Assembly: GCA_015231175.1 (NCBI GenBank)
Contig: JADGBZ010000023.1
Coordinates: 1 to 42,048, forward strand
Origin: Magnetococcales bacterium
GTDB taxonomy: Bacteria > Pseudomonadota > Magnetococcia > Magnetococcales > DC0425bin3
Length of the DNA stretch: 42,048 nucleotides
Direction of reading: 5' to 3'
Shown: piece by piece, positions 2-42,048 of the stretch
Layout: every line of letters starts with the position of its first letter
How positions within the stretch are numbered: position 1 is the first letter of the stretch
Program-made: the position numbers and the translations under genes
The notes under the pieces: generated by a model
The model's input: only the letters and a program-made list of their open reading frames with translations
The model's database searches: none
Told to the model about the DNA's origin: nothing

Positions 2-535
2 GCTTTTTGCGTCCCCGTCATATGTCAAGCCTCAAAAAACTTGAACATCGAGTTTTCAAGAGGGTTTGTAGAACACCCGAAAGTGGAATCCAAGAAAGCC
101 AACGCCATTGAGGATAACGCAGAAACGGCTAAGTGGTTGATGCCAGCAGGACACTATGCTGTCGTCCGCAGACTTTCCTCGAAGGAGGAAAAGCGCCGGA
201 TTGTTCCTGCTGTGTTCGATCCCAACAGGATCCCATGTCCCGGTGGCAAGGTCGGCTTCGAGAACCACTTGAACGTTCTTCACGAGAGGAAAAAAGGGCT
301 GCGTCCAGATGTGGCCCGGGGCCTTGCTGTCTACCTCGGATCGACTTTGGCGGACCAATGGCTGCGGCGTTTCAACGGACACACTCAGGTCAACGCGGGC
401 GACTTGCGGGTGCTTCGTTATCCCGACATGGATACCCTGGTGAAATGGGGTAAACGCATCGGTACAGTTCTTCCGCGCCAGGAGGAAATAGACGATATGG
501 TAGAGGAAGCGGTTCGTGCCAAGCAAAATAGATGA
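2..535 (+). CDS. BsuBI/PstI-type DNA adenine methyltransferase, C-terminal part (cut by window edge)
   Basis: This is the C-terminal end of a type II modification methylase. The reading frame is open to the first bases of the window, so the TTG at 41 is not the real start and the catalytic N-terminal domain lies outside. Visible are the stretches SSKEEKRRIVPAVFDP, IGFENHLN-like GKVGFENHLNVLHERKKG and the closing FNGHTQVNAGDLRVLRYP, which are characteristic of the C-terminal part of the PstI/BsuBI methylase family. The stop overlaps the start of the downstream restriction gene by 20 bp, so the two are translationally linked. By family, the enzyme would protect CTGCAG sites by adenine methylation; that specificity is inferred. 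The base composition looks more A+T-rich than the housekeeping genes, which fits a horizontally acquired cassette. Confidence 0.8.
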   Translation, partial: AFCVPVICQASKNLNIEFSRGFVEHPKVESKKANAIEDNAETAKWLMPAGHYAVVRRLSSKEEKRRIVPAVFDPNRIPCPGGKVGFENHLNVLHERKKGLRPDVARGLAVYLGSTLADQWLRRFNGHTQVNAGDLRVLRYPDMDTLVKWGKRIGTVLPRQEEIDDMVEEAVRAKQNR

Positions 536-1466
536 GGCGATGGAAATCATCGCATCCCTTGGGTTTCCAAGGGCACAACAAAATGAGCGATCGGCTCTTT
601 CGTTGCTTGCCTTGGTCCAACTTCGCGAGAATGGTTCGTGGCAAAAACTTTCTGATCCGAAACTCGGCATTCGGGCAATCCTGGATTTTTGTCGCAACGA
701 TTACGGCAAACCTTACGCCGAGAACTCGCGTGAGTCTTTCCGCAAGGAAACGATGCACCAGTTTGTGGCAGGTGGTCTTGCTTTCCAAAATCCTGACGAA
801 CCCGGTCGTGCCCCGAACAGCCCAAAGTGGTGTTACCAGATTGCTCCAAACGCAAAGATCATGCTGGAAAGTTACGGGACTTCCGCCTGGAACAAAACTC
901 TCGCCACCTATTTGGCGAAATCGGTCACCTTGGCAGAGAAATACAAATGTGAACGGGAGATGGCCATGGTGTCCTGTGTCCTTCCTGAGGGGGAGACGCT
1001 GAGGTTATCACCTGGATCTCATAGTGAACTGATCAGGGATATTGTCGAGCAGTTTGCCCCCCGTTTTGCCCCTGGAGCACGTCTTGTCTACATTGGAGAC
1101 ACTGGCAACAAGGGTGTTGTTTTCGACGAGGACCACCTTGCAACGCTTGGTGTTGTTGTTCATGAGCGAGGCAAAATGCCAGACGTCGTCATTCACGACG
1201 AAAAACGAAACTGGCTTATCCTTGTCGAGTCCGTGACCAGCGTTGGGCCGGTGGATGGGAAACGTCATGCCGAGCTTCTCCATCTTTTCGCGGCGTCAAA
1301 AGCCGGGATGGTTTTTGTGACCGCCTTCCCCGACCGCTTTTTGATGGCCCGCTTCTTGACAGATATTGCATGGGAGACCGAGGTATGGGTGGCTGATAAT
1401 CCAAGCCATCCCATACACTTCAATGGCAAGCGGTTTCTTGGTCCTTATGGGAAGCAGAGGAACTGA
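516..1466 (+). CDS. BsuBI/PstI family type II restriction endonuclease
   Basis: The 316-residue product matches the full usual length of the BsuBI/PstI restriction endonuclease family. An N-terminal helical region is followed by the catalytic C-terminal half with the family hallmarks LVYIGDTGNKGVVFDE, then PDVVIHDEKRNWLILVE and SVTSVGPVDGKRHAEL, and the closing DIAWETEVWVAD and HFNGKRFLGP. The PDVV...LVE...K arrangement is a PD-(D/E)xK-type nuclease core. Translation starts at GTG 516, with a GAGGAAG Shine-Dalgarno about 7 bp upstream inside the methylase gene; the 20-bp overlap keeps nuclease production behind methylase translation. The family cleaves CTGCAG, which is inferred for this member. 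The gene ends 6 bp before the convergently transcribed activase-like gene, with no obvious terminator between. It appears intact. Confidence 0.9.
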   Translation: MPSKIDEAMEIIASLGFPRAQQNERSALSLLALVQLRENGSWQKLSDPKLGIRAILDFCRNDYGKPYAENSRESFRKETMHQFVAGGLAFQNPDEPGRAPNSPKWCYQIAPNAKIMLESYGTSAWNKTLATYLAKSVTLAEKYKCEREMAMVSCVLPEGETLRLSPGSHSELIRDIVEQFAPRFAPGARLVYIGDTGNKGVVFDEDHLATLGVVVHERGKMPDVVIHDEKRNWLILVESVTSVGPVDGKRHAELLHLFAASKAGMVFVTAFPDRFLMARFLTDIAWETEVWVADNPSHPIHFNGKRFLGPYGKQRN

Positions 1467-1472
1467 AGTTTT

Positions 1473-4400
1473 TCAAGCGTTTTCTTGCCGGGTGCCAGCC
1501 CCCTGCATGCACCGGTGCAACCGTTCCGCCTGTAGGCAAAAGGCATCCAATCTGGCATCGATGCGTTGTGGAAAGGCGCCACCGTCCGTTTCGATGGCCA
1601 GGAAGGGGAGGGAGGGGTTTTTTTCCAGGAGGGCAGCCAAAGGTTTTTCACCGGGGCAGGCGGCGACTTTGTTGGCTGGCGTCAAGGCATCCACCATGAC
1701 GGCTTCGGCGATCCGATTGGGCAGACAGCCGAAAGGGGCGATGGCAATCACGCCGCAGACACGCGACGCAACTTCCAGAAGGCCACTGCCCACGGTCAGG
1801 ATGGTCTCTCCGGCCAGGGCGGGTGAAACAAATTTTTCTCCAGCCCGGATGATCTCCGGCAATGGTGGCGGGTTGTGAACCAGCAGACCGGATTTGAGCA
1901 GAATCCGGCGCAGGCGCCGTTCGTCACGCGCCATGACTTTTTTGCGCAAGGCAAACACCATTTTCTCCCACACTGACATGTGACCATCCACCTGGCCAGC
2001 GTCCACCAGGGCGTTGGAGTAGTGGACCCATTCGGCAATGCCGGTGGGGAGGGTGGCAAAGCCCCGTTCGGCCAGGCGTTGCACCAGGAACCCACGGGAA
2101 AAGGGGTCGCGCCGGACATAGATCTCCCCCGAAAGCGCTACCAGGGGAACCTCCTCAACCGGGCGGCGCAGAGGGATGGCCGCCAGCCTGGCTGCCGCAC
2201 TGGTCAAGGCCTTCTCCAGGGCCGCCAGGGTGCCAGTGGCCATGGCGTCCAGGACAGGACGCCACGTGTGCTGCAATGTCGTCAGGGCCGCTTCAGGCTC
2301 TTGGGCATTGGCCAATAGCATGGCGCGCACCTCCTCCATCATGTCAGCCAGAAGAATGCCCCACCAGGTGAACCGGGAAAAACGTGTTCCCAATCCACCG
2401 TAGGAATTTTCCGAGGTGAGCGAGAGGAGAAAAACATCAGGCTTGGCCAAACGACGCACCAAATCTTCCATGAAGATGGCATATTGGCCAAAGCGGCAGG
2501 GTCCAGAGGCCGTCGGCATGAAATAAAGCAAAATTTCATGCGGGTCGGTGCGGGTTTCCAGGTGTTGCACCAGCATGCCGGTGGTCAGGATCAGGGGAAG
2601 ACACTCGCGCCCCGAGACATGGGCGCGTCCGCGTTGCAAAACGGTGGCATCGGCGGCCCCATGGCCGATAGCATGAAATCCCACCAGGCGCAAAGCGGTG
2701 GTCAGGGCTTCCGTGAAAAACAGACCGACCCATGGAACCAATACCTTGACCCGGGGATCGCTGGCTGGAATCTTGGCGCCGGAGGCGGTGATGACCCAGG
2801 CGCGGCCATGACGAAAAAAGAGACGCGCCGGAGGAAGATGCGCGGTCGCAACCCCGGGTTGCGCTGCAACAGGTGGGCGCGGCATTTTTTCAAGAATGGA
2901 TGTGGCTGCCCAGGTGTTCGGTAACGCATCGGGGTCCAGGGGGCTGGCTCCCTGGCAGGTCCAGGACAGCGTCCTGGTGGGGTTCGGGGCGAAGCCCTGA
3001 CAAAGGCTTTCATATCCAGGCTTGTCTTGAAACGCATCGGGGTCCAGGGGGCTCGCTCCCTGGCAGGTTCGGGACAGCGCCCTGGTGGGGTTCGGGGCGA
3101 AGCCCTGACAAGGGCTTTCATATCCAGGCTCATCTTGAAAGGGTGCTGAGTTGTGACGCATGGAGATGCCTCGTTCTTTTGAGGCAAGGTTTGCCAACGC
3201 CACTTTCTGGTGACCCACCACGACATCCAGAAAAGCCTCGATGCGGGTCTCCAATCCGGCATCCGCCGTGTGACCGTCCAGTTCCAGGATGAGAAAAGGC
3301 TTGTGTTGAGCCTCCATGATCTCCCGAAAATAGCCCAGGATGAAGGAATCCGGTCCACAGCCAAAATAGGTGATAAACACGCCGAACAGACGGGGATGAC
3401 GGGCGGTGAAACGGGTCGCCTTCAAGAGCTTTTGACCCAAACCCCAGTACATGTTCTCCTTGGCAGGGTCGGCATGGGCGGGCAGTTGGTCAAAGGCCAG
3501 AGTGGGCATCCCCCGCGTGGCAAATTTGGTGGAGATGCCCAGGTTGGCATCCGGCGTCAACCCTCCATAGGGTCGTGAAAACAGAACGATGCCGGTCTGT
3601 TCCGAATGTTGTTCCAACGTTGCCAGGGTACGTTCCCCCTCGGCCAGGAGCGTTTGTTCCCAGGCGCGCTGTTTTTGTGCGGCGGTTTGCCAGGCCATCG
3701 CAGCCAAGCTGAGGGAGATCCCCATCTCTCTGGCCATCTCCATGAGGGGCGCCACACCCCCTTCCAGACCATGCGTAAAATCCAACAGGGGTGACAGGAT
3801 ACGCACACCGCGTTGCTGCAAGGCGGTCAACTCGGGGCGAAAGGCGGCCTGCACATAGAATGGTTCGGCCTGCACGATGGGACATGCCTGGGAAAAGGTG
3901 TGTCCGGGCTGCGCCGGTACCGCCCGAAAATGGGGCAGGAACAGATAGTCCGGCGGATCATCCAGGTTGAGAAGGGTATGCAGATAGCCATGGGCCAACT
4001 CGGCAGGATGACAGAGAGCGGCGTTGCGCCGTTCGATTCCTGCCGGCGAGCACGTCTCCGGCACCAGGGGTTGCCACCCCAGGGCGGCGAAAAAATGGGT
4101 ATAGAGGGGTTGAAATTGATGCAACATGAAACTGCGATTCAATCCCACCCTGCCCCGTGCGGCTTTGACCTCCATGCGGCTGGCGGCAAGTTGCGTGTCA
4201 CGTCGTGCCATGACCCGGTCCAAGGCGGCTGCATCGACGCGCAGGTGTTGTCGGGCGTTGACGTATTTGTTGCAGGCTCCGCCAAAAGGCACCCGATGCC
4301 CCTCCACCTCGAACACGGCGATGTCGCAATGGCGATCACAGGCCATTTGGGTGCCGGGGCAGGTAAAGTGCCTGGTTATGTGAATCTCCTTGTCGGCCAG

Positions 4401-6182
4401 TTTTTGCAGATCGAAATGTCCGGCTGCCATGGTGGCATCCCGGAGACGCCGCTCGATCTGCAAAGCCACTCCCAGGGCCCCCATCAGGCCGGGCTCAGGG
4501 GGCACGACGATGGGAACGCCCAGGAGGCCGGCCATGGCCAACGGCACGGCATGGTTGTAACAAACGCCGCCCTGCATGAAAACGCGCCGTCCCACCGGGC
4601 GTTGTCCCTTGACCCGATGCAGATAGTTGATCCCGATGGCATAGACCAGGCCGGCCACGATCTCTTCCCGGGAACAACCGGAGTGAACGGCATTGTTGAC
4701 ATCCGTTGCGATAAAGGCGGCACACTGGTCGCTGAAGGTTGGTATCCGTTCACCCCGCATGGCCGCTGTGGCGATCTCTTGCAGGGAGACTCCCAGGGTC
4801 TCCCAGGCGGCCTCCTCCAGGAAGGAGCCGGTGCCCGCCGCACAGGCTTCATTCATGGCATAATCGATGGGAACGCCGTGGGCCAGGCGGGTGTATTTGG
4901 CATCCTGGCCGCCGATTTCAAACAGGGTTTCCACCTCCGGGTCAAAGTGGGCAGCCGCTGTGGCGTGGGCGACGATTTCGTTGATGATGCCGGTCGCATG
5001 GGCGTGCAACCCGGCGATCTGGCGACCGGAACCGGTGATGCCCAGGCCCTCGATCACCACGTCGCTGGCGTCGGGAAGGGCTGCGGCAAGTTGTTGCCGG
5101 ATGGCCCGATAACAGGCCCGGGCCGCCCCAACCGGGTCACCGTTGGTTCGCAGGTAGATCGCGGCCAGAAAGGCTTGATCGTTGCTGCGCAACAAAACCG
5201 CCTTGGTGGTGGTGGAGCCGACATCCAGGCCCAGGACGCAGCGATCCCCCGGGTGGGGCGTTTGTCGGGAGAGGGTCTTGGATGTGACCAGATGGGCATG
5301 CGTGGCGAGGGGAGGAAGGGAACTGAATGTCTGGGTGCGTTGCAGAATGAATTGATCCCGGGCAGGCAGGGGCAATGTGACATGCGTCATGGCCCATATG
5401 GCAGCGCCCAGGGCTTCGAAACAGGTCGCCCAGGAGGAGACCGCCACTTGTGGATGTTCCCGGCGCAGGTACTCCAGCATGAGCCGGTTGCGCGTCACCC
5501 CGCCTGTCAGCAATACCGCTCCCGAGGTGCGTGCCTTGACGAGCAGTTCCATCACTTTGCCAGCCATCATGCGGCACAGGCCGGCAACGATTTTTTCCCG
5601 ATCCACCCCCTTGTTGGCCGCGTGGGTGCAGTCGGACTTGCAAAACACGGAGCAGCGCCCGGAGACCGGATAAGGGTCGGCAACCCATGGCAGGGAGACG
5701 GCAGCTTCCAGAGAGATGCCCAGACGGCGGACCTGCTGCAAAAAAAACTCCCCGGTTCCCGAGGCGCAGGTGCTGCCGGCCACAACACCGGATATCTGAC
5801 CGCCTGGTGTGAGGGGATAGACGAGAAACCCTTCCCCGCCCAGCGCCAGCACGGCCTGGAACCCACGGCCTTGAATATCCGGCAGGGTCAAGGCCTGTTC
5901 CACGGCCCAGGGTTCGGGAATACGTGTCAGATTGACCCGCTGGGAAAAACGCCCTCCGGTGACCGCCGCGCCGGCAAATGACTCCTCCTGCCAATGGGCG
6001 AGCAGGTCGCGCAAGTGGGTTTCCGGGTCACCCAGATGGGCGCGAGATGTGCTTTCGACCACCTGCCAGGGAGAATCTTCGGCAGCGTCGATGCAATGCT
6101 CCAGGACCACAGCCGAAATCGTTGCAGCGCCGATGCAAAGCCCCAGAGTGCGTCTTTGTCTGGACTTGTCGGGGTGTTCCAT
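1473..6182 (-). CDS. giant 2-hydroxyacyl-CoA dehydratase activase-like protein with two ASKHA ATPase domains and in-frame repeat insertion
   Basis: About 1569 residues from the ATG at 6182; the frame stays open to a TTG at 6305, but the first 41 extra residues look non-coding. Two BadF/BadG/BcrA/BcrD-type ASKHA ATPase domains come first. Domain one (about residues 10-280) contains STCASGTGEFF and CSVFCKSDC. Domain two (about 313-590) contains LGLDVGSTTTKAVLL, IGGQDAKY, ACAAGTGSF and SDQCAAF. A DUF2229/COG3580-like region (about 640-1000) and a COG3581-like C-terminal region with GRECLPLILTTG follow. Such proteins resemble the ATP-driven Fe-S activators of 2-hydroxyacyl-CoA dehydratases and benzoyl-CoA reductases; the conserved cysteines suggest [4Fe-4S] clusters. 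The substrate and partner are unknown. Residues of about 1010-1086 are encoded by two tandem 108-bp copies of the hairpin repeat, lying in the linker before the C-terminal region. The gene has no operon neighbours. Confidence 0.8.
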   Translation of the reverse strand: MEHPDKSRQRRTLGLCIGAATISAVVLEHCIDAAEDSPWQVVESTSRAHLGDPETHLRDLLAHWQEESFAGAAVTGGRFSQRVNLTRIPEPWAVEQALTLPDIQGRGFQAVLALGGEGFLVYPLTPGGQISGVVAGSTCASGTGEFFLQQVRRLGISLEAAVSLPWVADPYPVSGRCSVFCKSDCTHAANKGVDREKIVAGLCRMMAGKVMELLVKARTSGAVLLTGGVTRNRLMLEYLRREHPQVAVSSWATCFEALGAAIWAMTHVTLPLPARDQFILQRTQTFSSLPPLATHAHLVTSKTLSRQTPHPGDRCVLGLDVGSTTTKAVLLRSNDQAFLAAIYLRTNGDPVGAARACYRAIRQQLAAALPDASDVVIEGLGITGSGRQIAGLHAHATGIINEIVAHATAAAHFDPEVETLFEIGGQDAKYTRLAHGVPIDYAMNEACAAGTGSFLEEAAWETLGVSLQEIATAAMRGERIPTFSDQCAAFIATDVNNAVHSGCSREEIVAGLVYAIGINYLHRVKGQRPVGRRVFMQGGVCYNHAVPLAMAGLLGVPIVVPPEPGLMGALGVALQIERRLRDATMAAGHFDLQKLADKEIHITRHFTCPGTQMACDRHCDIAVFEVEGHRVPFGGACNKYVNARQHLRVDAAALDRVMARRDTQLAASRMEVKAARGRVGLNRSFMLHQFQPLYTHFFAALGWQPLVPETCSPAGIERRNAALCHPAELAHGYLHTLLNLDDPPDYLFLPHFRAVPAQPGHTFSQACPIVQAEPFYVQAAFRPELTALQQRGVRILSPLLDFTHGLEGGVAPLMEMAREMGISLSLAAMAWQTAAQKQRAWEQTLLAEGERTLATLEQHSEQTGIVLFSRPYGGLTPDANLGISTKFATRGMPTLAFDQLPAHADPAKENMYWGLGQKLLKATRFTARHPRLFGVFITYFGCGPDSFILGYFREIMEAQHKPFLILELDGHTADAGLETRIEAFLDVVVGHQKVALANLASKERGISMRHNSAPFQDEPGYESPCQGFAPNPTRALSRTCQGASPLDPDAFQDKPGYESLCQGFAPNPTRTLSWTCQGASPLDPDALPNTWAATSILEKMPRPPVAAQPGVATAHLPPARLFFRHGRAWVITASGAKIPASDPRVKVLVPWVGLFFTEALTTALRLVGFHAIGHGAADATVLQRGRAHVSGRECLPLILTTGMLVQHLETRTDPHEILLYFMPTASGPCRFGQYAIFMEDLVRRLAKPDVFLLSLTSENSYGGLGTRFSRFTWWGILLADMMEEVRAMLLANAQEPEAALTTLQHTWRPVLDAMATGTLAALEKALTSAAARLAAIPLRRPVEEVPLVALSGEIYVRRDPFSRGFLVQRLAERGFATLPTGIAEWVHYSNALVDAGQVDGHMSVWEKMVFALRKKVMARDERRLRRILLKSGLLVHNPPPLPEIIRAGEKFVSPALAGETILTVGSGLLEVASRVCGVIAIAPFGCLPNRIAEAVMVDALTPANKVAACPGEKPLAALLEKNPSLPFLAIETDGGAFPQRIDARLDAFCLQAERLHRCMQGAGTRQENA
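2923..3146 (-). repeat. two tandem in-frame copies of the hairpin repeat inside the activase-like gene
   Basis: Two units with a period of exactly 108 bp (2923-3030 and 3031-3138, with the conserved GCACCCTTTCAAG-type edge reaching 3146) lie on the minus strand. Because 108 is a multiple of three, each adds 36 codons; the encoded units begin FQDEPGYESPCQGF and FQDKPGYESLCQGF and both end ASPLDPDA. The DNA matches the intergenic copies at 6307, 24867 and 30312. The central stem of the 2923-3030 unit reads CCAGGAC/GTCCTGG. The two units differ at several positions, so the duplication is not brand new. Confidence 0.95.
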
Positions 6183-6306
6183 GCGACTCTTCTGAGACAG
6201 ATGCGACCTCCTTTCCTGCAACAGATACACGCCATGGGTACGATGCCCATCCCGGTCGAAAGAGACGACCTGACCGCCAGCCGACCATCTTAACAAAGAT
6301 GGCAAC

Positions 6307-6448
6307 GATTCGGCACCCTTTCAAGAAAAGCTTGGATATGAAAGCCTTTGTCAGGGTTTCGCTCCGAACCCCACCAGGACTTTGTCCTGGACCTGCCAGG
6401 GAGCCGGCTCCCTGGACCCGACTCGTTGCCGGGTGCCGAGTAGTTTCC
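6307..6448 (+). repeat. interspersed hairpin repeat, intergenic copy
   Basis: A full copy starting near GATTCGGCACCCTTTCAAG and running through three hairpin modules: the CAGGGTTTCGCTCCG region, CCAGGAC-TTT-GTCCTGG, and a perfect 20-bp palindrome of CCAGGGAGCC and GGCTCCCTGG. The distal end (CGTTGCCGGGTGCCGAGTAGTTTCC) corresponds to the GGTGAATAGTTAC end seen at 24867 and 32569. It fills the space between the divergent activase-like gene and the glycosyltransferase fusion and stops only a few bases before the ATG at 6453. Besides this repeat I see no clear promoter in 6183-6452. Confidence 0.9.
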
Positions 6449-24866: not shown

Positions 24867-25004
24867 GTAACTATTCACCACCCGGCCACGAATCGGGGTC
24901 CAGGGGGCTGGCTCCCTGGCTTAGTCCAGGGCAGAGCCCTGGTGGGGTTCGGGGCGAAGCCCTGACAAAGGCTTTCATATCCAAGCTTTTCTTGAAAGGG
25001 TGCA
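24867..25004 (-). repeat. interspersed hairpin repeat, intergenic copy
   Basis: A full-length copy in minus orientation between the unknown gene at 24016-24819 and the PFOR terminator. It runs from a GCACCCTTTCAAG-type edge to the GGTGAATAGTTAC-type end. The central stem is CCAGGGC/GCCCTGG, the G:C version of the stem that is CCAGGAC/GTCCTGG at 2961 and 6386. The minus-strand frame through it reads GYESLCQGFAPNPTRALPW, the same frame used inside the activase-like protein. Confidence 0.92.
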
Positions 25005-25049
25005 GAAAAGTTGCAGTTTTTCATACAAGGGAACCAAATCTGCCCGCAC

Positions 25050-30240: not shown

Positions 30241-30467
30241 CGGCACCCTTTCAAGAAAAGCCAGTGGCTCAACCGACATGATTTGAAGTGTTCACTTTTC
30301 GTGATTACTCCGCACTCTTTCAAGAAAAGCTTGGAAATGAAAGCCTTTGTCAGGGCTTCGCCCCGAACCTCACCAGGGCGCTGCCCTGGACCCGCCAGGG
30401 AGCCAGCCCCCTGGACCCCGATTCATGGCTTGCCTGCACATCAAATCAACATGGTTGAGCCACTAGG
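30241..30467 (+). mobile_element. composite hairpin repeat bounded by imperfect terminal inverted repeats (MITE-like)
   Basis: A short fragment of the repeat edge (GGCACCCTTTCAAGAAAAGC, 30242-30261) is interrupted by AGTGGCTCAACCGACATGAT and following bases, after which a second CTTTCAAGAAAAGC (30317) opens a full repeat copy with the CCAGGGC-GCT-GCCCTGG stem. The right end, GGTTGAGCCACTAGG at 30453-30467, is the inverse of the left 30261-30274. The similarity extends inward (CATGATTTGAAGTG against TTGATTTGATGTG), giving imperfect ends of about 30 bp. No transposase is encoded. It sits between ybaB and dnaX and fills most of 30145-30481. Confidence 0.75.
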
Positions 30468-37221: not shown

Positions 37222-38799
37222 ATGACCGGTGGATCACGGAGAAACATGCAGCGGAATGTCCCCATCCACCGCAAATGGCGCAAAGATCGGAGTCGCCCGG
37301 ATGCCCGGTTGCCTTTACCGGGCTCCTTCGGCGGAGGTTTTGTCCGGTGGGGCCTGTTTTCAACCGGTTTTCTCTGGCTGCTCATCCTGACGCTGGGGTT
37401 ATGGCCCCCGGCAGGCTGGGCTGCCCGGGATCGTGCCCGTGCCCTGGAACAGAATCGTTTGCGTCTGCAACAAGTCGTCAGTCGTCTCCAGGCGGAACAG
37501 ACCGCCCGGGAGCAGGCCAAAGGCCAGGAGAAGACCCTGACAGGGGAACTGGAACAGTTGGATCAGCAACTGGCCGAAGGAGAGCAACGCCGCAAGGAGA
37601 TGGCCGGTCATGCCAACCAATTGACGGAACAACTCCCCGAACTGAACCGACAGATCGACATCCTCAAGAGCGAACTGGAGCGGTCCCGGCGCTTGCTGGA
37701 CCAACAATTGCGCATGGCATATGGCATCGGAGAGCAAGGCATGCTCAAAATGCTGTTCTCTCCTCGTGACACCGGGCAATGGCGAGAAGGGATTCAATAT
37801 TTCGGCTACCTGATTCAGGCACGCAATAGACGCTTCCTGGAGTATCGGGATACTGTTACGCGCCTGAACTCTGCCATCAAAGGACATCGGGAGTTGTTGG
37901 AACGCTTGGCAGCCATCACCGCCAAACAGGAAGAGGCTCGCCAGCAACTGTTGCAACGCCGGGAAGAACGCGCCACCTTGTTGCAGCGGGTGCAAAAGGA
38001 TGCGCGCCTGCGGGAACGCCAGGTCACCGAACTGGCCCGTTCCCAGGAACGACTGGAAAACTTTGTCACCCGCCTGGAGACGCTCCTCCAGGAGGAGAAA
38101 GAGAAGGCCGCCCGAGAAAAGGAAGCCAGGGCTGCCCGAAAAAAAGCCGCCCAACTGGCCAATGAAGAGGCCGCCCTGGCAGCCAAGGAGGCCAAGGCAG
38201 CCCGGGAAAAGGAAGCCCGGGCCATGAAAGAAAAATCTGCCAAGGATGACAGACAACAGGAAAGTTCGGCCACCGCCAAAAATTCCGAATCCGCTGAGGA
38301 TTCCGCCGAGTCTTCCATAGGGGAGGATGAAGATGCGTCCCAGGCACCGCATGGCCCTGGCGAGGCCAATCGCAAACAGGTCGAAAAGGGAGTGCCCCAC
38401 TCAGGCGCAAAAAAGGTTGCCTTTGGCCAGATTGGGGAGCATCGCGGACACTTGCCGCATCCGGTCCCGGGGCGTGGGCGCCGAAAGCCCCCCGGCATGT
38501 TTTTTCAGGCTTCGCCCGCCACACCTGTGCGAGCCGTGTTTCGGGGTGAAGTCGTTTATGCGGACTGGTTTCGCGGATACGGGTTGATGATCATCCTGGG
38601 TCATGGTCATCGTGCATACTCCCTGTACGGACACAACCAACGCCTTCTGGTCAACCAGGGCGATTGGGTCAACGAAGGAGACAAGATCGCCGAGACTGGA
38701 GATACCGGATCCCTGGAAGGAGTCCCCGGTCTCTACTTTGAAATCCGCCACCAGGGAAAGGTGGAAAATCCCACTCAATGGCTGGCATCGGGCGGTTGA
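37222..38799 (+). CDS. envC: murein hydrolase activator EnvC
   Basis: 525 residues. A basic N-terminus precedes a hydrophobic signal segment (GLFSTGFLWLLILTLGLWPP, ending near GWAARDRA), then a long coiled coil (about residues 70-300) with QxxAxxxQ/E heptads, a K/E/A-rich low-complexity stretch (about 300-345), an acidic-Ser linker, and a C-terminal LytM/M23 domain from about residue 425. In that domain the zinc ligands are lost: the usual HLHFE is GLYFE (in GVPGLYFEIRHQGK). This degeneration is what makes EnvC an activator of the cell-division amidases rather than a peptidase. It acts in the periplasm at the septum. The extended, highly charged linker is larger than in E. coli EnvC. Confidence 0.9.
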   Translation: MTGGSRRNMQRNVPIHRKWRKDRSRPDARLPLPGSFGGGFVRWGLFSTGFLWLLILTLGLWPPAGWAARDRARALEQNRLRLQQVVSRLQAEQTAREQAKGQEKTLTGELEQLDQQLAEGEQRRKEMAGHANQLTEQLPELNRQIDILKSELERSRRLLDQQLRMAYGIGEQGMLKMLFSPRDTGQWREGIQYFGYLIQARNRRFLEYRDTVTRLNSAIKGHRELLERLAAITAKQEEARQQLLQRREERATLLQRVQKDARLRERQVTELARSQERLENFVTRLETLLQEEKEKAAREKEARAARKKAAQLANEEAALAAKEAKAAREKEARAMKEKSAKDDRQQESSATAKNSESAEDSAESSIGEDEDASQAPHGPGEANRKQVEKGVPHSGAKKVAFGQIGEHRGHLPHPVPGRGRRKPPGMFFQASPATPVRAVFRGEVVYADWFRGYGLMIILGHGHRAYSLYGHNQRLLVNQGDWVNEGDKIAETGDTGSLEGVPGLYFEIRHQGKVENPTQWLASGG

Positions 38800-40335: not shown

Positions 40336-41997
40336 ATGACTTTGGACAATTCCGAAAAAGGGCACGATGCGGACGACAAGTCTGCGGATAATGAGGCTCC
40401 AGCACCAGAAAAACCCCTGCGCAAAAGGGGCGTTCTGGCCGTCGGGCTTTTGGTGGTTGCTTGGATCGGTATGGGAGTCTATCTATGGCCGGTGTTGCGG
40501 GATCCGCAACACCTGGCCATGGCTTCATCCTCTCGCGAAGGAGGGGGAGCGGGTTGGGATGGGGGGTCTGATCGTGTCACCCTGGGGGATGTTCCTGCCG
40601 AGAGTGTTCAGGGTGGTATCGGTGCAAGGCTCCTCTCTTTATCGCGTACCCTTTCGGAGAGTAGTGCCACCCCTGCTGACTTCCCCTCTCCCGGGGCGTC
40701 CCACGGGGTTGTCCTTTCCTCTGCCGCTTCCCCGGACAGTGCCGTGCATGCGGTCCCTTCTGCCGTGTCAACCTCTGCCTCCTCTGCACCGGAAACATTG
40801 TCGGTCTCGGACTCTGCCACCGATGTTGAAGCAGGGGCAGGTGCCTCTCCGGTGTTTACGCCCATATCCATCGCTCCCCTCCCGCCCCCTGTGGCGCCGT
40901 TGCCCAACATCGTGACAGGTACCGCACCTCCCCTGCCCTCTGCTGCTCGGACAACCGCAGCAGTTCCCACTCCGGCTGCGAAACCTGTTCCGGGCTGGGT
41001 GTCTTCTTCAGCCACCCAGCCGGTCGCTTCGACCCAGCATGCAGAACCAGGAGTGGACACCAACGTCTCCACCCCAACCCAGGCAGGGAGTTCAACCCCA
41101 CAGCCCACATTGCTGGTTGCTTTGGAGCGGAAAACAGACAAAACTGCCGATGATGGAAACAGATCCGTTCTGTATGAAGAGCATTTTTCCGACGATGCCG
41201 AGTTGTCACAGCACCCCTCCGATACGCCGCCACCATCACCCCGTTCGCCTGCGGAGATGCGTGGGCACCGTCAAGGCTGGGCCCAGGTCGCTGTGATCAT
41301 CGATGATCTCGGTTATAATGGCCCGGTTTCGGAGGGTATCGCCCGCCTGCCAGCGGATTTGACCCTGGCCATTCTCCCAGGTGGGGGTCACTCTCGCGCC
41401 GTGGCCAACCTGGGCAAAGCGACAAACAAAGAGATCATTCTGCATCAGCCGATGGAACCACGGGGTTATCCGCATCTCAATCCGGGGCGTGGCGCCCTGT
41501 TGATGGGGATGGATCGGGAGCGCACCCGGCGCATCCTTGAGGCCAACCTAAATCAATTTCCGGAAGCCAGGGGTGTCAACAACCACATGGGTTCGCGGTT
41601 CACAGCCGATTCCGTCGGCATGGGCAGGGTGATGGAAGTACTGGCGGAGCGTGGGTTGTTTTTTGTCGACAGCCGAACCGCTGGAAGGTCGGTCGGGGTG
41701 CGCGAGGCGGTTGTCCACCATGTTCCACGTGTACAACGCGATATTTTTCTGGACAATGTTCCCAACGTTCGAGCGATCAATCAACAACTGGCCCGTCTGG
41801 AAGCGGTGGCCCACAGGCATGGATCAGCCGTGGCAATTGGCCACCCTTACCCGGCAACATTGGCCGCTCTGCGGAGCTGGCTGCCAGAGGCGAAAAGCCG
41901 CAGGATCGAGGTGATTCGCGCCTCGCAACTCCTGGGGCCGGCGTCCTCCCGCGCCCGCTATCCAACCCGCACACCTGTGGTTGCCCAGGCGCACTAG
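40336..41997 (+). CDS. divergent polysaccharide deacetylase family protein (YibQ-like)
   Basis: 553 residues. A charged cytosolic N-terminus, one TM anchor (GVLAVGLLVVAWIGMGVYLW), a long Ala/Ser/Pro/Thr-rich linker (about residues 60-310), and a C-terminal NodB-fold domain that starts QVAVIIDDLGYNG. Motifs include ILHQPMEPRGYPH, ARGVNNHMGSRFT, GLFFVDSRTAG and AVAIGHPYPATL, the pattern of the DUF610/YibQ group. By family it is linked to envelope polysaccharide or peptidoglycan processing, with the exact substrate unknown. It starts 12 bp after ctpA and completes the gpmI-envC-ctpA cluster. The TAG stop at 41995-41997 lies in the terminal inverted repeat of an interspersed element. Confidence 0.9.
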   Translation: MTLDNSEKGHDADDKSADNEAPAPEKPLRKRGVLAVGLLVVAWIGMGVYLWPVLRDPQHLAMASSSREGGGAGWDGGSDRVTLGDVPAESVQGGIGARLLSLSRTLSESSATPADFPSPGASHGVVLSSAASPDSAVHAVPSAVSTSASSAPETLSVSDSATDVEAGAGASPVFTPISIAPLPPPVAPLPNIVTGTAPPLPSAARTTAAVPTPAAKPVPGWVSSSATQPVASTQHAEPGVDTNVSTPTQAGSSTPQPTLLVALERKTDKTADDGNRSVLYEEHFSDDAELSQHPSDTPPPSPRSPAEMRGHRQGWAQVAVIIDDLGYNGPVSEGIARLPADLTLAILPGGGHSRAVANLGKATNKEIILHQPMEPRGYPHLNPGRGALLMGMDRERTRRILEANLNQFPEARGVNNHMGSRFTADSVGMGRVMEVLAERGLFFVDSRTAGRSVGVREAVVHHVPRVQRDIFLDNVPNVRAINQQLARLEAVAHRHGSAVAIGHPYPATLAALRSWLPEAKSRRIEVIRASQLLGPASSRARYPTRTPVVAQAH

Positions 41998-42048
41998 TGG
42001 ACCAACCGACATGATTTGAAGTGTTCACTTTTCTTGACTATTCCGCAC
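41993..42048 (+). repeat. left end of a TIR-bounded repeat element, cut by window edge
   Basis: CTAGTGGACCAACCGACATG and the following bases up to TTCCGCAC match 30261-30314 (AGTGGCTCAACCGACATG...CTCCGCAC) with few changes. The element presumably continues into the hairpin repeat beyond the window. Confidence 0.85.

What the first reader, a model, noticed from the sequence alone, without database searches (positions are those of the whole stretch)
2923..3146. Interspersed hairpin repeat domesticated inside a coding sequence, twice and in frame
Two tandem 108-bp copies of an otherwise intergenic repeat (other copies at 6307, 24867, 30312) are translated within the giant activase-like protein, adding 2 x 36 residues (units begin FQDEPGYES / FQDKPGYES and end LDPDA). 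They sit in the linker before the C-terminal COG3581-like domain, keep the frame because 108 is divisible by 3, and use the one repeat frame without stops. This parallels Rickettsia palindromic elements that insert into genes, but the sequence is unrelated as far as I can see. It may be a new class of protein-inserting repeat.
Basis: partly seen in the sequence, partly recalled or inferred. Interest (0 to 1): 0.85.

Follow-up and report, generated by a model that had tools for sequence, protein, structure and literature searches.

The report
Transposon fragment tolerated inside enzyme gene
A very common 147-bp non-autonomous jumping element (a MITE) once landed in the linker of a large enzyme gene and was later partly duplicated, adding 88 amino acids without breaking the reading frame; this is a neat, real example of a known kind of event and not a new class of protein-inserting repeat.

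Summary
Two 108-bp copies (94% identical) lie in frame in a 1,610-codon activase-like gene. They are the duplicated interior of ONE larger insertion at 2902-3157: a MITE with terminal inverted repeats and a decayed 8-bp target duplication (CTCCATGC/ATCCATTC). In the same genome the family consensus is 147 bp with 17-bp GTAACTATTCA... ends; 22 sampled copies have perfect 8-bp duplications. The ends resemble the genome's one intact IS66 element. Homologues of the gene, in two sister species and dozens of distant bacteria, all lack the insert. The gene is under purifying selection on both sides of it, and AlphaFold predicts the insert disordered. The interpretation as a new class of protein-inserting repeat fails: about 330 copies per genome are estimated; 0 of 32 copies in a blind 400-kb sample are in-frame internal insertions, and only one other internal case was found (MutL linker). 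A standard copy adds 155 bp and shifts the frame. This gene keeps frame because its copy is a 148-bp variant (148+8=156) lacking the usual stops, then duplicated by 108. In-frame MITE fusions are documented, so this is a new member of a known kind.

The parts
1473..6305 (-). Host gene: 2-hydroxyacyl-CoA dehydratase activase-related protein (two BcrAD_BadFG ATPase stretches, DUF2229, conserved C-terminal domain); open frame of 1,610 codons, start probably ATG at 6182 or a little downstream
2902..3157 (-). Whole inserted MITE copy, 256 bp (148-bp variant plus 108-bp internal tandem duplication), about 85 residues (P0001 residues 1050-1135)
3141..3157 (-). Left terminal inverted repeat, GTCACAACTCAGCACCC (consensus GTAACTATTCAGCACCC)
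2902..2919 (-). Right terminal repeat, stop-free variant GAACACCTGGGCAGCCAC (consensus GGGTGCTGAATAGTTAC; variant seen elsewhere as GGGTACCTGGGCAGTTAC)
3158..3165 (-). Putative target-site duplication, left copy CTCCATGC
   Evidence: 6 of 8 match with the right copy
2894..2901 (-). Putative target-site duplication, right copy ATCCATTC
3033..3140 (-). Core copy 1, FQDEPGYESPCQGFAPNPTRALSRTCQGASPLDPDA
2925..3032 (-). Core copy 2, FQDKPGYESLCQGFAPNPTRTLSWTCQGASPLDPDA
6302..6447 (+). Copy of the same MITE just upstream of the gene
24867..25014 (-). Another copy of the same MITE
30261..30466 (+). Second MITE type (CTAG-bounded ends TGGCTCAACCG...CGGTTGAGCCA) carrying the same hairpin core

Best explanation
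The feature is one old insertion of a high-copy MITE (GTAAC... terminal inverted repeats, 8-bp target duplication, IS66-like) into the linker between two folded domains of an activase-related protein. The inserted copy was a 148-bp variant whose right end lacks the usual stop codons, so insertion plus target duplication added 156 bp and kept the frame. An internal 108-bp tandem duplication then added 36 more codons, again in frame. The product is a tolerated, disordered linker extension, kept open because the host gene is selected. Shown: element anatomy, absence in homologues, open frame, constraint on both flanks. Inferred: mobilisation by an IS66 transposase, order of events, neutrality of the peptide.
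For: In 696 kb of the same genome 96 TIR pairs enclose the core; 22 have identical 8-bp flanking duplications and 30 match at 7 or 8 of 8, while 0 of 68 TIR-like pairs without the core match at 7 or more; 23 of the 36 core-bearing copies with at least 6/8 match are exactly 147 bp. The window copy aligns to that consensus across the left TIR and both cores and shares its right-end variant with other copies such as L104 and L098. The genome's one intact IS66 element (1,699 bp) ends GTA(A/G)(C/T)CGTTCAG..., close to the MITE over the first 12 nt, with a near-perfect 8-bp duplication. Orthologues in two sister species (73 and 67% identical) lack the insert. In 57 measured homologues the spacing across the site is 127-131 residues in 54 and 133-161 in 3; in the window it is 239, and 151 after subtracting 88. 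All 36 aligned homologues lack the insert. dN/dS against the closest sister is about 0.16-0.17 on both sides of the insert. The insert is predicted disordered (pLDDT <50 at segment residues 117-214) between confidently folded regions.
Against: The target duplication of this copy is imperfect (6/8; about 0.4% by chance for fixed ends) and its TIRs are degraded, so insertion is inferred through the family. dN/dS mostly measures time before the insertion. The link to IS66 rests on about 12 nt of terminal sequence, the GTAA start and the 8-bp duplications. No transcript or protein data exist here.
Confidence: 0.88

Rival explanations
1. A specialised protein-inserting repeat, as Rickettsia palindromic elements are read: evolved to be translated and to spread through coding sequences.
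For: In-frame cases exist: this gene, the MutL linker, and C-terminal tails on a NUDIX and an HD protein. Two sense frames are open through the core.
Against: 0 of 32 evaluable copies in a blind 400-kb sample are in-frame internal insertions. The standard copy shifts frame (147+8=155). Tandem spacings of 48 neighbouring copies are spread over all three phases (20/15/13). Open frames are expected in G+C-rich sequence. The few genic cases sit in linkers or at protein ends.
Confidence: 0.04
2. The insert peptide is domesticated: it has a selected function in the activase or in MutL.
For: The frame has stayed open in an old insertion; the element lies between conserved domains.
Against: Differences between the two copies are 3 synonymous and 4 non-synonymous, too few to decide but giving no sign of strong constraint; predicted disordered; MutL uses a different reading frame of the same element, so there is no common peptide.
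Confidence: 0.06
3. The gene is a pseudogene or split gene and the open frame through the repeat is accidental.
For: Mobile-element insertions usually inactivate genes.
Against: 1,610 codons are open; the C-terminal domain downstream of the insert is as constrained as the N-terminal part (dN 0.186, dS 1.18), although TIR and target duplication have decayed.
Confidence: 0.04

Closest known systems
Prokaryotic MITEs with IS66-type ends (GTAA..., 8-bp direct repeats)
   Same: Short non-autonomous element, terminal inverted repeats starting GTAA, 8-bp target duplications, high copy number; an IS66 element with similar ends is present in the genome. IS66 is described with 20-30-bp ends starting GTAAGCG and 8-bp repeats (PMC11946415).
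   Different: No Rfam family and no match in the plasmid collection; TIR agreement with the resident IS66 is limited to about 12 nt; it carries a three-hairpin core that is also found without these ends.
Rickettsia palindromic elements (RPE)
   Same: About 100-150-bp hairpin repeat that can be translated in frame within host proteins; target proteins tolerate it.
   Different: RPEs are in genes in nearly half of cases in R. conorii (review PMC10969869); here internal in-frame copies are about 1% of loci. No RPE sequence was available for a direct comparison.
Intragenic MITEs with in-frame ORF fusions (ERIC, BOX, Anabaena and Coxiella MITEs as listed in PMC10969869)
   Same: In-frame fusion of MITE sequence to host ORFs is described there as not unusual.
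   Different: New family and host; here the inserted copy was also tandemly duplicated in frame.

Membership tests
MITE | Short element with terminal inverted repeats and no transposase gene | tested here: met
   147 bp, 17-bp TIRs, many exact copies
MITE | Target-site duplication of constant length | tested here: met
   22 copies with identical 8-bp flanks, 30 with at least 7/8; none at 7/8 or better among 68 pairs without the core
MITE | Target-site duplication at the window copy itself | tested here: inconclusive
   CTCCATGC/ATCCATTC, 6 of 8
IS66-derived MITE | Ends match those of an IS66 family element | tested here: inconclusive
   GTAAC start and first 12 nt resemble the resident IS66; inner TIR differs
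IS66-derived MITE | Mobilised by an IS66 transposase | not testable with these tools
   needs a transposition assay
Rickettsia palindromic element-like protein-inserting repeat | Frequent in-frame location inside genes | tested here: not met
   0 of 32 evaluable loci in the blind sample; two internal cases among about 172 loci
Rickettsia palindromic element-like protein-inserting repeat | Insertion length keeps the reading frame | tested here: not met
   Consensus 147+8=155; only a 148-bp variant keeps frame
Rickettsia palindromic element | Sequence homology to an RPE family | not tested
   no RPE sequence at hand; no Rfam family hit over the element

The most novel reading that the evidence does not exclude
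The 66-nt three-hairpin core is itself a selected or selfish module of the whole order, held independently by two unrelated MITE families (GTAAC ends with 8-bp duplications; CTAG-bounded ends) and also found without either, so that a hairpin passenger moves from one transposon end system to another and occasionally becomes protein sequence.
Probability: 0.3. Interest if true: 0.5.

Novelty: new member of a known kind. Interest (0 to 1): 0.33.

Why it matters
It documents with unusually complete evidence (element ends, target duplications, dozens of homologues without the insert, constraint on both flanks) how a bacterial MITE can lengthen a protein linker, and it shows the condition required: a 1-nt longer, stop-free end variant. 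It cautions against reading in-frame repeats as specialised protein-inserting elements. The hairpin core shared by two MITE families and across an order is the part worth following.

Tried and rejected
Most long open frames that contain a copy are not genic insertions: they look like antisense ORFs, or the gene's start codon lies downstream of the element (KdsB, Tex, leucine aminopeptidase, RelA-like and others). A single-codon coding measure was too weak and was replaced by a periodic Markov model. No plasmid hit and no Rfam family. Literature searches found no description of this repeat family in Magnetococcales. The Ogata 2002 RPE paper is not held, so the RPE comparison rests on a review.

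Full report
WHAT IS THERE. The minus-strand frame 1473-6305 encodes a 1,610-codon protein with BcrAD_BadFG ATPase domains and DUF2229. It contains two 108-bp tandem copies at 2923-3138, 94% identical. The same sequence recurs all over the genome: 51 listed DNA matches from 653 candidates, over 150 peptide matches, and 35 loci in a blind 400-kb sample, which scales to about 330 per 3.8-Mb genome.

THE REPEAT IS A MITE. Aligning complete copies with their flanks shows fixed ends, GTAACTATTCAGCACCC...GGGTGCTGAATAGTTAC. Of 96 TIR pairs enclosing the core in 696 kb, 22 have identical 8-bp flanks (for example GCAAAATC, ACATGGTA, GATTGATC) and 30 match in at least 7 of 8; of the 36 with at least 6/8, 23 are exactly 147 bp; none of 68 TIR-like pairs lacking the core reaches 7 of 8. 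The consensus folds as one long hairpin of about -65 kcal/mol. The only intact IS66 transposase gene found in the genome lies in a 1,699-bp element with ends GTAGTCGTTCAGAGACCCC / GTAACCGTTCAGAGACCCC and flanks GTAGATTC / GTAGACTC. Its first 12 nt resemble the MITE ends, and IS66 elements are described with GTAAGCG-type ends and 8-bp repeats (PMC11946415). I therefore infer IS66-type mobilisation; this is not proven.

THE COPY IN THE GENE. Reading the gene strand, the element starts GTCACAACTCAGCACCC at 3157 and ends GAACACCTGGGCAGCCAC at 2902: 256 bp, flanked by CTCCATGC and ATCCATTC (6 of 8). It equals a 148-bp element plus a 108-bp internal duplication. The right end belongs to a rare variant, seen also at L104 and L098 as GGGT(A/G)CCTGGGCAGTTAC, that is 1 nt longer and lacks the TGA/TAG of the common right end. 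Arithmetic: common copy 147+8=155, frame lost; variant 148+8=156, frame kept; plus 108, total 264 bp = 88 codons. So '108 is divisible by 3' is only the second half of the story. The consensus has two sense frames without a stop through the core and one open antisense frame.

HOMOLOGUES LACK IT. Two same-genus orthologues (73 and 67% identity) align across both domains with linkers far shorter than the window's. In 57 homologues where two anchor motifs could be measured the spacing is 127-131 residues in 54 and 133-161 in 3 (these include the two sisters at 136 and 161); the window has 239, which becomes 151 after removing 88. None of the homologues holds the peptide motifs, and an alignment of 36 shows the gap directly. 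dN and dS against the closest sister are 0.196/1.175 before the insert and 0.186/1.184 after it, so both parts are constrained, with the caveat that most divergence predates the insertion. AlphaFold2 on the 391-residue segment gives folded regions on both sides and pLDDT below 50 over residues 117-214, which covers nearly the whole insert (residues 111-196). The two copies differ by 3 synonymous and 4 non-synonymous changes: too few to decide, but no sign of strong constraint on the peptide.

HOW OFTEN DOES THIS HAPPEN. In the blind 400 kb, 32 of 35 loci could be classified with a periodic coding model (83% correct on its own validation windows): 13 lie between non-coding flanks, 13 have one coding flank, 6 have coding flanks on both sides but on opposite strands, in different frames or with stops between; none is an open in-frame internal insertion. 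Over the whole 1.1 Mb, including regions chosen because copies lay in long frames, I found two internal in-frame cases: this gene and MutL (L099:2385-4424). In MutL a degraded partial copy with its own 69-bp tandem duplication lies in the linker (insert at residues 399-454, between DNA_mis_repair ending at 337 and MutL_C starting at 495) and is read in a different frame; the sister species' MutL linkers lack it. Two genes (a NUDIX and an HD protein) run into a copy and end in its right TIR, giving element-encoded tails of about 40-45 residues. A transposase-like gene is truncated by a copy (L276). In a few lipoprotein or secreted-protein genes the right TIR may supply the start codon. The coding classifier is imperfect and the MutL case was missed by its length cut-off, so these counts are lower bounds. 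Spacings of 48 same-strand neighbouring copies fall in all three phases (20/15/13), so duplication is not tuned to the reading frame; only the copies in genes are filtered.

WHERE ELSE. The full MITE is present in one sister species (94% identity) and, at 90-99%, in one genome of another family of the order (G039), which suggests transfer between lineages. The inner 66-nt core alone gives matches in many genomes of the order; in all, 30 of 61 genomes match, all of the same order, and none of 13 genomes from elsewhere in the phylum. On 24 diverse cores the three hairpins keep 93.6% of pairs, with changes on both sides at 7 pairs, beyond all shuffles and slid controls. A second MITE family with CTAG-bounded ends carries the same core. 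The order is probably Magnetococcales; this is my inference from the relatives listed (no class-level outgroup between order and phylum; one 4.7-Mb single-contig member), not a database statement.

COMPARISON. A 2024 review (PMC10969869) states that in-frame fusion of intragenic MITE ORFs is not unusual and that Rickettsia palindromic elements do so at unusually high frequency, nearly half of them in genes. The present family works like other intragenic MITEs and, on frequency and frame arithmetic, fails as a protein-inserting class. I file it as a new MITE family with a well-documented tolerated in-frame insertion.

Noticed in passing
window 30261-30466 and 41996-42048; L090:4611, L127:4282, L098:12526 and about a dozen more: A second MITE family (about 200-247 bp, ends TGGCTCAACCG...CGGTTGAGCCA bounded by CTAG) carries the same hairpin core; the L090 and window copies look inserted inside copies of the first family.
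   Followed up: partly
L099:2385-4424 (-): MutL with a degraded partial copy of the element, tandemly duplicated by 69 bp, in its linker and in a different reading frame.
   Followed up: yes
L105:8678-9349 (+) and L097:6304-6999 (+): A NUDIX protein and an HD-domain protein end in tails of about 40-45 residues encoded by the MITE, stopping at TGA in its right TIR; the copy at L097 has a perfect target duplication.
   Followed up: partly
L121:17988-19487, L102:975-2006, L107:13995-15719: Elements abut secreted or lipoprotein genes so that the right TIR may provide the start codon (GTG or ATG) and first residues.
   Followed up: partly
30 of 61 genomes of the order: The 66-nt three-hairpin core occurs widely in the order without the MITE ends and shows compensatory changes.
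   Followed up: partly
G039:C109 and C157 (L213, L014): Copies 90-99% identical to the MITE in a genome of another family, suggesting transfer between lineages.
   Followed up: no
L070 (G001:C90), activase linker: The sister species' linker carries its own unrelated short tandem repeat (PLAAVSSYPPAD twice), so this linker tolerates expansion repeatedly.
   Followed up: no
window 516-1466 (+): BsuBI/PstI-type restriction endonuclease gene directly next to the 3' end of the activase gene.
   Followed up: no
window 38080-38241: Imperfect 24-bp tandem repeats inside a peptidase M23 gene.
   Followed up: no
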